DNA from: Dehalococcoidia bacterium
GTDB taxonomy: Bacteria > Chloroflexota > Dehalococcoidia > Bin125
NCBI GenBank assembly: GCA_022828105.1
Contig: JAJEJC010000003.1
Span: 1-64,000, forward strand
Length of the DNA stretch: 64,000 nt
Direction: 5' to 3'
Shown: positions 49,312 through 53,475 of the stretch, one piece after another
Layout of the letters: every line of letters begins with the position of its first letter
Numbering within the stretch: position 1 is the stretch's first letter
The notes under the pieces: generated by a model
Database searches by the model: none
Seen by the model: the letters and a program-made list of their open reading frames with translations, nothing else
What the model was told of the DNA's origin: nothing
Translations under genes and position numbers: made by a program

Positions 49312-51281
<1,970 letters not shown>

Positions 51282-51282
51282 G

Positions 51283-52275
51283 ATGGCCAGACCATTCCTC
51301 AAGTGGGCGGGCGGCAAGACGGCGTTGCTGCCGCAGTTGCTCGATGCCGCGCCTGGGCAGATCGACACCTACTACGAGCCGTTCCTGGGCGGCGGCGCCC
51401 TGTTCTTCGCGCTCCAGGCCGAAGGGCGCTTCGAGCGAGCCGTCCTCTCTGACAGCAACAAGGAACTGATCAACGCCTACAGGCAGGTCCGCGACAACGT
51501 CGACGGCCTGATCCGGGCGTTGCAGGTGCATCAGCGCAAGTACCGCGCCGCCGAGGATCGGGCGGAGTACTACTACAAGATTCGCGCCAAGCGGCTTACT
51601 TGCAGCCTTGGTGGCGCTGCCAACCTGATTTTCATGAACAAGACGGGCTACAACGGGCTCTATCGCGTCAACAGCAAGGGACGATTCAACGTCCCCCACG
51701 GCCGCTACGAGAATCCCACCATCTGCGACGAAGCAAGTCTGCTAGCAGCATCGGAAGCGCTTCAAGGGGTCAAGCTGGTGTTCGGAGATTTTTCGTCTGC
51801 TCCCCGTAGGGCCGATGTCGGCGACTTCGTCTACTTCGACCCGCCCTACGTCCCGCTTAGCGACACCTCAAACTTCACGTCGTACACGGCTGGAGCATTC
51901 TCCGGGCCAGAGCAAAAGCGACTGGCGCTGACTGCGGCCGGTCTGGTACGACGAGGAGTGAATGTGGCACTGTCCAACTCTGGCCATCCAGATATCGTCG
52001 CTCTCTACTCTGCCGCGGACTTCGAACTCACTAGTGTCGATGCACCTAGGTTGATCAACTCAGACTCGGCAGCAAGAGGCTCGATCTCGGAACATTTGAT
52101 TCGAGAACGGCAGGAGGTGATCTTTCGACCTCGTGTCACGTCGTTTACCCAAGCTGATACCCGAACCCGCACATTTTCTAGGCGCCATCCACTTCTAGGT
52201 CGAAGAAGAACTGCAACCACGTCTCCAGCTCTTCCAATCCAACCGCGCTCCCTCTGGCGCGCAAGTAAGCGGTGA
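51283..52275 (+). CDS. D12-class DNA adenine methylase (Dam-type)
   Basis: A 330-residue N6-adenine methyltransferase of the Dam/DpnII type. Motifs: PFLKWAGGKTALLPQLL (residues 4-20), EPFLGGGALFFAL (32-44), NLIFMNKTGYNGLYRVN, and FDPPY at 185-189. The family's fold ends near residue 282 (ERQEVIFRP). The last 45 residues run antisense into the adjacent nuclease gene and look like chance Arg/Thr-rich sequence. Codon use is GC-rich like the host in the first third and becomes less so after about 51590. It starts 1 base after the DUF402 stop, and converges with two PD-(D/E)XK genes. Probably the modification half of a restriction system. Confidence 0.9.
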   Translation: MARPFLKWAGGKTALLPQLLDAAPGQIDTYYEPFLGGGALFFALQAEGRFERAVLSDSNKELINAYRQVRDNVDGLIRALQVHQRKYRAAEDRAEYYYKIRAKRLTCSLGGAANLIFMNKTGYNGLYRVNSKGRFNVPHGRYENPTICDEASLLAASEALQGVKLVFGDFSSAPRRADVGDFVYFDPPYVPLSDTSNFTSYTAGAFSGPEQKRLALTAAGLVRRGVNVALSNSGHPDIVALYSAADFELTSVDAPRLINSDSAARGSISEHLIRERQEVIFRPRVTSFTQADTRTRTFSRRHPLLGRRRTATTSPALPIQPRSLWRASKR

Positions 52276-52561
52276 AGCCAGGGGAGTAGCCGTCGCCCGC
52301 AAAGACCAACAGTCCACGGATCGGCCACGCTTCCATATCCTCCAATGTGGCTAGCGCTCTCTCTTCTGCGGTTCCTTGTTCACTCTGGAACATACATGAG
52401 ATACCTAGCCGCAAGCGCTGCCTCGGGTCGGATACCACGACATCGACCGTCCTCTTCCGTCCCCATATCTTTCTGCCCATTGACACTCTGGTCTTAGTCT
52501 CGAGCCCTAGGTTTCGGGCCAAGTCAGCAACGTGCGATACGACTTCCCAGTGGTTCTTCAT
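52178..52561 (-). CDS. Degenerate PD-(D/E)XK-fold paralog next to Dam
   Basis: A protein of 127 residues from the ATG at 52561, where the alignment with its neighbour begins; an in-frame TTG at 52579 is possible. It aligns end to end with the next gene: GRKIWGRKRTVDVVVS against GDRIWGPRRHVDVVLS, then LGISCMFQ against LGIECKYQ, then GTAEERALATLEDMEAWPIRG against GTVEEKISLTVEDMEDWPIRG (in parts). The first Asp is kept, but the catalytic Glu is Ser and the Lys is Met, so it cannot cut by this site. The downstream 98 bases overlap the methylase gene on the other strand. A regulatory or DNA-binding subunit is a reasonable guess. Confidence 0.75.
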   Translation of the reverse strand: MKNHWEVVSHVADLARNLGLETKTRVSMGRKIWGRKRTVDVVVSDPRQRLRLGISCMFQSEQGTAEERALATLEDMEAWPIRGLLVFAGDGYSPGFTAYLRARGSAVGLEELETWLQFFFDLEVDGA

Positions 52562-52575
52562 CCCCCGATCCGCCT

Positions 52576-53001
52576 TCAATCGCTGCCATTCAAGAGCAAC
52601 TCAGCCTGCTGTGCTCTCTCTCTCGGCAGTCTGAAGTAGAAACGAAGCCATTCAGCGAGCCGCTTGAACTCGACAATGTGGCCCCGTCCCTTCAGAAATG
52701 GCCTGAAGTCCCGAGAAAATCCATCGCCGTGCAAGACAACGATTCCTCGAATCGGCCAATCTTCCATGTCTTCGACCGTGAGCGAGATCTTCTCTTCAAC
52801 AGTGCCCTTCGCCCTCTGATACTTGCACTCGATGCCGAGCATTCGTTCAGTGTCCGGCTTGCTGAGCACGACATCGACATGACGTCGTGGTCCCCAAATG
52901 CGATCGCCCATGACTACTTGGCGCTCGACCTCCAGGCCTAGCGCCTCACCTACCATTGCCACTGCTCTCTCGAGGTCGGCCCCCGACTTAATCTCAATCA
53001 T
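52576..53001 (-). CDS. PD-(D/E)XK nuclease, putative restriction endonuclease
   Basis: A 141-residue protein. The catalytic core is Asp43 in RRHVDVVL, and Glu58-Cys-Lys60 in MLGIECKYQ, with Gln62 following, which is a complete PD-(D/E)XK pattern. GTVEEKI after it is a likely structural helix. The size is small but comparable to minimal restriction enzymes. It is followed by the degenerate paralog on the same strand, 14 bases between the stop and the preferred start, and is convergent with a Dam-type methylase. A MaoC gene lies just downstream in sequence, 9 bases from the start codon side, transcribed in the same direction. Confidence 0.82.
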   Translation of the reverse strand: MIEIKSGADLERAVAMVGEALGLEVERQVVMGDRIWGPRRHVDVVLSKPDTERMLGIECKYQRAKGTVEEKISLTVEDMEDWPIRGIVVLHGDGFSRDFRPFLKGRGHIVEFKRLAEWLRFYFRLPRERAQQAELLLNGSD

Positions 53002-53010
53002 GGCCCCAGC

Positions 53011-53475
53011 TTACTCCGGGCGCTTCGGGATCATCACTGCCCGATGGAACGACAGGACCTCCGTGCCGTCCTGATTGGCGGCGGTGGTGTGGACGGTGAC
53101 GATGCCGCGGTCGGGCTGGCTCTTGCTCTCGCGGACCTCCAGCACCTCGGTGCGGGCCTGGAGCGTGTCCCCGTGGAAGACGGGAGCCGTGTGGCGCAGG
53201 TCCGAGGTGGCGAGATTGGCGATTGCCTTGCCTGAGATCGTCGGCACGGTCATCCCGAAGACCAGCGAGTAGACGAACGGGCCCGAGACCACGCGTTGAC
53301 CGAACTGCGTGTCCTCGGCGAACTGCTTGTTCGTGTGCAGCGGGTGATGATTCATCGTCAGCATGCAGAACATCAAGTCATCGGCCTCGGTCACCGTGCG
53401 CGCGGGCCAGTGCTCGATCACTTCGCCGACCTCGAACTCGTCGAGGTAGCGTCCGTACAGTTCCTTCGTCGGCAT
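53011..53475 (-). CDS. MaoC family hydratase (mesaconyl-CoA-hydratase-like pattern)
   Basis: A 154-residue single hot-dog domain. The catalytic loop is MLTMNHHPLHTNKQFA, where His follows the NxxPLH pattern; Asn stands where many (R)-hydratases have Asp. This NxxPLH form is seen in mesaconyl-CoA or methylmalyl-CoA dehydratase-like MaoC proteins. LRHTAPVFHGDTLQARTEVLEV supplies the PV..GDTL block. It probably hydrates or dehydrates a branched or dicarboxylic acyl-CoA. The upstream acyl-CoA dehydrogenase is on the same strand, separated by a REP-like repeat. Confidence 0.85.
   Translation of the reverse strand: MPTKELYGRYLDEFEVGEVIEHWPARTVTEADDLMFCMLTMNHHPLHTNKQFAEDTQFGQRVVSGPFVYSLVFGMTVPTISGKAIANLATSDLRHTAPVFHGDTLQARTEVLEVRESKSQPDRGIVTVHTTAANQDGTEVLSFHRAVMIPKRPE

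What the first reader, a model, noticed from the sequence alone, without database searches (positions are those of the whole stretch)
51283..53001. Compact restriction-modification-like locus with an intact and a dead PD-(D/E)XK subunit
A Dam-type methylase is convergent with two small tandem PD-(D/E)XK paralogs. The first (52576-53001) keeps Asp43, Glu58 and Lys60. The second (52178-52561) aligns end to end with it but has Ser and Met at the Glu and Lys positions while keeping Asp and Gln. Keeping both copies intact in frame suggests a heteromeric nuclease with one catalytic and one non-catalytic subunit. Known heterodimeric type II enzymes (BbvCI, Bpu10I) have two catalytic subunits, so this arrangement would differ.
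Basis: partly seen in the sequence, partly recalled or inferred. Interest (0 to 1): 0.75.

Follow-up and report, generated by a model that had tools for sequence, protein, structure and literature searches.

The report
GATC restriction locus with pseudo-nuclease paralog
A small bacterial restriction-modification system carries, right after its normal DNA-cutting enzyme, a second copy that has lost its cutting residues but is still preserved by selection; it probably binds DNA or the live enzyme, and it exists with and without the live copy in sister species, so it is not simply half of an obligatory two-part nuclease.

Summary
R1 (52576-53001, -) and R2 (52178-52561, -; possibly from TTG 52579) are tandem PDDEXK_11 (PF20472) paralogs convergent with a DpnM/Dam-type methylase (51283-52275, +). 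R1 keeps D43-E58-K60; R2 has S and M for E and K.

R1 plus methylase is an ordinary type II R-M arrangement: of 80 homologs from many phyla, 71 lie beside a D12 methylase and 78 are single. The tandem with a dead copy was found only in one Dehalococcoidia genus (3 of 15 genomes). There a fixed chromosomal slot (DUF402-M-[R]-MaoC) holds R1 alone, R1+R2, an R2-like copy alone, or nothing. R2 is not a pseudogene (dN/dS about 0.12-0.15). Its start overlaps R1's stop in all three tandem loci, which suggests coupled translation. Both proteins are predicted to keep the nuclease fold.

An obligate live/dead heterodimer is weakened: R1 occurs without R2 (G012), R2-like proteins occur without R1 (G006, G008, G014), and a 95%-identical R1 is paired with R2s only 37% identical. 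Best reading: R1 is the restriction enzyme and R2 a retained pseudo-nuclease modulator, analogous to Sau3AI's dead domain. The mechanism itself is untested.

The parts
51283..52275 (+). M: Dam/DpnM-type D12 N6-adenine methyltransferase; GATC-contact residues (YNGLxR...NVPxGRY) and DPPY kept; the tail 277-330 overlaps R2
   Evidence: GATC specificity inferred from DpnM/Dam homology
52576..53001 (-). R1: intact PDDEXK_11 nuclease (D43, E58, K60, Q62), presumed type II restriction endonuclease
52178..52561 (-). R2: pseudo-nuclease paralog (E58S, K60M, R34K, G7H in R1 numbering; D and Q kept); possible start at TTG 52579
52576..52579 (-). TTGA overlap of the R1 stop with a possible R2 start (GTGA in G005; 14-nt overlap in G007): possible translational coupling
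52178..52275 (.). 3' overlap of convergent M and R2; low synonymous divergence between G000 and G007 here (pS 0.21 against 0.82 elsewhere in R2)
53011..53475 (-). MaoC-like dehydratase gene directly upstream of R1 (9-nt gap); one fixed border of the R slot in the genus
   Evidence: identified by sequence resemblance
50736..51281 (+). DUF402 protein gene ending 1 nt before M; the other fixed border of the R-M slot

Best explanation
This is a compact type II restriction-modification locus. M methylates adenine at a palindromic site, probably GATC. R1 is the restriction enzyme and probably works as a homodimer. R2 descends from the same nuclease family; it lost the catalytic Glu and Lys but kept the fold, and is still under purifying selection and probably co-translated with R1. 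The most likely role of R2 is a non-catalytic accessory that binds the site and/or pairs with R1 and so tunes restriction (dampening, nicking or allosteric site sensing), comparable to the dead nuclease domain of Sau3AI. Shown here: the R-M linkage, the motif loss, the selection, the start/stop overlap and the fixed slot. Inferred: GATC specificity, homodimerisation, DNA binding by R2 and modulation of R1.
For: PDDEXK_11 genes lie next to D12 methylases in 71 of 80 loci across many phyla and in 28 of 31 full-length class-level loci found without motif bias. M is closest to DpnM (E 9e-61) and keeps the Dam GATC-contact residues. R2 keeps 29 of 37 family-invariant positions but lost E58 and K60. 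R2 in G000 against G007: pN 0.17-0.20, pS 0.64-0.82. R2 start overlaps R1 stop in 3 of 3 tandem loci. Both models are confident PD-(D/E)XK folds (pLDDT 88.7 and 91.4). Sau3AI precedent.
Against: R2-like proteins persist without R1 in G006, G008 and G014, so R2 may have a job unrelated to R1. R2 branches are long, which fits relaxed constraint. G000 and G005 R1s are 95% identical but their R2s only 37%, which is not what a tightly co-evolved complex would show. No test of dimerisation, DNA binding or the recognition site was possible. GATC is not avoided in the genome.
Confidence: 0.45

Rival explanations
1. Obligate heteromeric nuclease: R1 and R2 form a heterodimer in which only R1 cuts, giving a nickase or an asymmetric enzyme.
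For: Adjacent genes with overlapping start and stop in three genomes; R2 under purifying selection; same fold.
Against: R1 without R2 in G012 and intact single R elsewhere; R2-like without R1 in three genomes; R1 95% identical with R2 37% identical between G000 and G005; a single methylase with a probably palindromic site, whereas Type IIT systems usually have two (PMC4081073).
Confidence: 0.2
2. R2 is a decaying former restriction gene: an older resident R gene inactivated by substitutions and on its way out, with R1 a second, working copy.
For: Four relatives keep M with an empty R slot; R2-like copies show different losses at E58/K60 (S/M, A/M, V/R, Q/R, or E with R60) and long branches; broken R or M-R loci exist elsewhere in the phylum (L044, L180).
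Against: R2 is open in every genome that has it, with pN/pS about 0.24 at saturated synonymous distance; 28-30 of 37 family-invariant positions are kept.
Confidence: 0.2
3. R2 is an R1-independent, methylation-sensitive DNA-binding protein (a repurposed non-cutting restriction enzyme) acting with M on gene expression, replication or M itself.
For: Solo R2-like genes directly beside M in G006, G008 and G014 with no other family member in the genome; fold and conserved D43/R40/W36 kept; G014 against G008 solo pair has pN 0.37, pS 0.70.
Against: No binding data; R2 proteins are acidic to neutral except G008 (pI 4.7-6.2), though R1 is similar; G014 and G008 keep the Glu and could still be active.
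Confidence: 0.12

Closest known systems
Type II R-M systems with a PDDEXK_11 (PF20472) nuclease and a D12 (Dam/DpnM) methylase
   Same: R1 and M, gene neighbourhood, intact motif, size
   Different: The extra tandem copy without catalytic residues; in other genomes R is single
Sau3AI (GATC; two MutH-like domains, C-terminal one catalytically dead and effector-binding; PMC548270)
   Same: Live plus dead duplicate of a PD-(D/E)XK unit beside a GATC-type methylase; dead copy retained
   Different: Sau3AI is one polypeptide of MutH type; here two separate proteins of another family, and the dead one also occurs alone
Type IIT heterodimers BbvCI, Bpu10I (PMC4081073, PMC6326814)
   Same: Two different subunits of one restriction enzyme encoded at one locus
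   Different: Both BbvCI/Bpu10I subunits are catalytic, the site is asymmetric and two methylases are usual; here one copy is dead and there is one methylase
Catalytically dead paralogs that regulate a live enzyme (e.g. AdoMetDC prozyme, PMC5201418)
   Same: Live/dead paralog pair with the dead one retained by selection
   Different: Unrelated enzymes; here regulation is not shown and the dead copy also exists alone

Membership tests
PDDEXK_11 (PF20472) | Match above Pfam cut-off (23.7 bits) | tested here: met
   R1 68.7 bits, R2 59.3 bits
Type II R-M system | Nuclease gene linked to a methyltransferase of the same locus | tested here: met
   Convergent with D12 M; linkage conserved in 71 of 80 loci
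Type II R-M system | Nuclease cuts the site that the methylase protects | not testable with these tools
   No biochemical data; GATC not avoided neither supports nor excludes it
Dam/DpnM GATC methylase | Dam family score, DPPY motif and GATC-contact residues | tested here: met
   TIGR00571 252 bits; alignment to 2dpm and 2g1p. Specificity itself untested
Type IIT heterodimeric REase (BbvCI, Bpu10I) | Two different catalytic sites | tested here: not met
   R2 lacks Glu and Lys in all three tandem loci
Type IIT heterodimeric REase (BbvCI, Bpu10I) | Usually two methyltransferases for an asymmetric site | tested here: not met
   One methylase gene at the locus, Dam-type; whether another methylase elsewhere in the genome takes part was not tested
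Sau3AI-like | MutH-type nuclease duplicated in one chain, second domain dead | tested here: not met
   Two separate ORFs and PDDEXK_11, no MutH match in Pfam; only the live/dead logic is shared
MutH-like mismatch-repair nickase | Organism relies on MutH with a MutL lacking its own nuclease motif | tested here: not met
   MutS and MutL are present in the genus and MutL has DQH(A/G)AHE and CPHGRP, the nuclease-type motifs
Pseudogene | Disrupted frame or neutral evolution | tested here: not met
   Open in all genomes that have it; dN/dS about 0.12-0.15

The most novel reading that the evidence does not exclude
A restriction enzyme lineage has become a pseudo-nuclease that works beside a GATC-type methylase as a non-cutting reader or modulator of the same site, paired with the live enzyme in some species (possibly making a natural live/dead nicking heterodimer) and acting without it in others.
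Probability: 0.25. Interest if true: 0.75.

Novelty: new variant of a known kind. Interest (0 to 1): 0.45.

Why it matters
Retained dead paralogs of stand-alone restriction enzymes appear to be rarely described; the literature searches here found none of this family. If R2 modulates R1 or reads the methylation state, it would show a route from restriction to regulation, and the genus offers a natural series (R1 alone, R1+R2, R2-like alone, methylase alone) at one chromosomal slot in which to test it. A natural live/dead pair could also be a compact nicking enzyme.

Tried and rejected
Viral contigs with A2: no relative found. No PDB relative by sequence. GATC avoidance: none, and the same with or without R. 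MutH-like role: considered because of a possible GATC nickase, made unlikely by a nuclease-type MutL. Recent duplication of R1 into R2: rejected, 43% identity within G000 and R2 groups apart from R1. Single origin of all R2-like genes: neither shown nor rejected (AU p 0.34). Assembly artefact: unlikely, the tandem occurs in three separate MAGs. The neutral no-stop simulation was weak (P 0.01-0.10) and is not relied on.

Full report
Observation. The three ORFs are as described. R1 and R2 both match Pfam PDDEXK_11 far above its cut-off and are 48% identical over 112 residues without a gap. R1 has D43, E58, K60 and Q62; R2 has D, S, M and Q at those places. In a 74-row alignment the 70 intact members are invariant at D43, E58, K60 and Q62; the four rows lacking both E and K are R2 of the window and its relatives in G007, G005 and G006. 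They also all differ at G7 and at R34, the latter invariant in the intact set. AlphaFold models of R1 (pLDDT 88.7) and R2 (91.4) have the same order of elements and match PD-(D/E)XK nucleases. So the second copy is, by prediction, a folded pseudo-nuclease.

The methylase. M is a Dam-family enzyme, closest in the PDB to DpnM. The segment that contacts GATC in Dam and DpnM (YNGLxR, NVPxGRY) and DPPY are kept (the role of these residues is from general knowledge). GATC specificity is therefore likely but untested. GATC is abundant and not avoided, equally in genomes with and without R.

Family context. A scan of GTDB genomes gave 80 loci from Chloroflexota, Hydrogenedentota, Acidobacteriota, Myxococcota, Verrucomicrobiota and others: 71 have a D12 methylase in the fetched stretch and 78 have one R only; the two exceptions are the genus relatives G005 and G007. 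That scan used patterns around the intact motif. HMM searches without that bias over the phylum and the class and inspection of the loci showed single R genes, and all 31 full-length class-level ones outside the family keep Glu and Lys (for L157, where the motif was misread by the script, the same contig as L064 shows LGIECKHQ).

The genus. Fifteen genomes of the genus are held. The locus is a fixed slot: purA, DUF402, M, [R slot], MaoC, acyl-CoA dehydrogenase. The R slot holds R1+R2 in G000, G005 and G007; an intact single R in G001, G003, G010 and G012 (and in G017 of a sister genus); a single R2-like gene in G006, G008 and G014; and nothing in G004, G009, G011 and G013, where M is followed by MaoC with no R gene between. 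G002 had neither. In G012 the sequence right after the R1 stop is the antisense of an M C-terminus (my reading of the sequence), so R2 is absent there, although its R1 is nested among those of the tandem loci. The relatives carry names such as Dehalococcoidia or Chloroflexota bacterium.

Is R2 maintained? Between G000 and G007 R2 has 78% amino-acid identity over the 127 aligned codons, dN/dS 0.12-0.15 (R1 0.05, M 0.20). Outside the overlap with M synonymous sites are saturated (pS 0.82) while pN is 0.20. R2 evolves faster than R1 but is clearly constrained. In each tandem locus a start codon of R2 overlaps the R1 stop (TTGA in the window, GTGA in G005, a 14-nt overlap in G007), which fits translational coupling. 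R1 is unusually conserved: 95% identical between G000 and G005 at pS 0.78, where flanking genes have pS 0.38-0.52.

What it does. The pair looks like a live enzyme and a dead, coupled paralog. An obligate heteromer is disfavoured: R1 lives without R2, R2-like genes live without R1, and nearly identical R1s sit next to R2s with 37% identity. A single palindrome-type methylase also differs from Type IIT systems, which have two catalytic sites and usually two methylases (PMC4081073). The closest precedent is Sau3AI, in which a duplicated nuclease domain lost its catalytic residues and became an effector-binding domain (PMC548270). I therefore favour a modulating or site-binding role for R2, with decay of an older R gene, an obligate heteromer, and an R1-independent reader as rivals. 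A MutH-like nickase role is unlikely because MutL in the genus carries nuclease-type motifs.

Limits. Trees of these short, fast sequences cannot settle whether R2-like genes have a single origin. Selection was measured on few pairs with saturated synonymous sites. G008 and G014 keep the Glu and have Arg for Lys, so loss of activity there is uncertain. No complex could be modelled. Function of R1, R2 and M rests on homology.

Noticed in passing
G000 contig C1 (window plus L129-L132); L147-L148 for G014: CAGCTG is strongly under-represented (14 seen, 64 expected in 144 kb; 5 against 23 in G014; milder in G001 and G011), which may point to a PvuII-type restriction system in the genus.
   Followed up: no
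52111-52275: The C-terminal tail of M (residues 277-330) overlaps R2 antisense; its counterpart in G007 is alike and synonymous divergence in the overlap is low, so the tail may be functional.
   Followed up: partly
L182 (G458) and L047 (G364): More distant PD-(D/E)XK genes next to Dam-type methylases have altered motifs (IRCRSQ, IQCKWQ), so degenerate partners may occur in another subfamily.
   Followed up: no
L044 (G374) and L180 (G447): Frameshifted R (and in G374 also M) genes: examples of decaying PDDEXK_11 R-M loci.
   Followed up: partly
51283-53001: The R-M genes have low GC3 (0.64-0.68) against 0.86-0.90 for flanking genes, as expected of acquired DNA, although the locus position is fixed across the genus.
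   Followed up: partly
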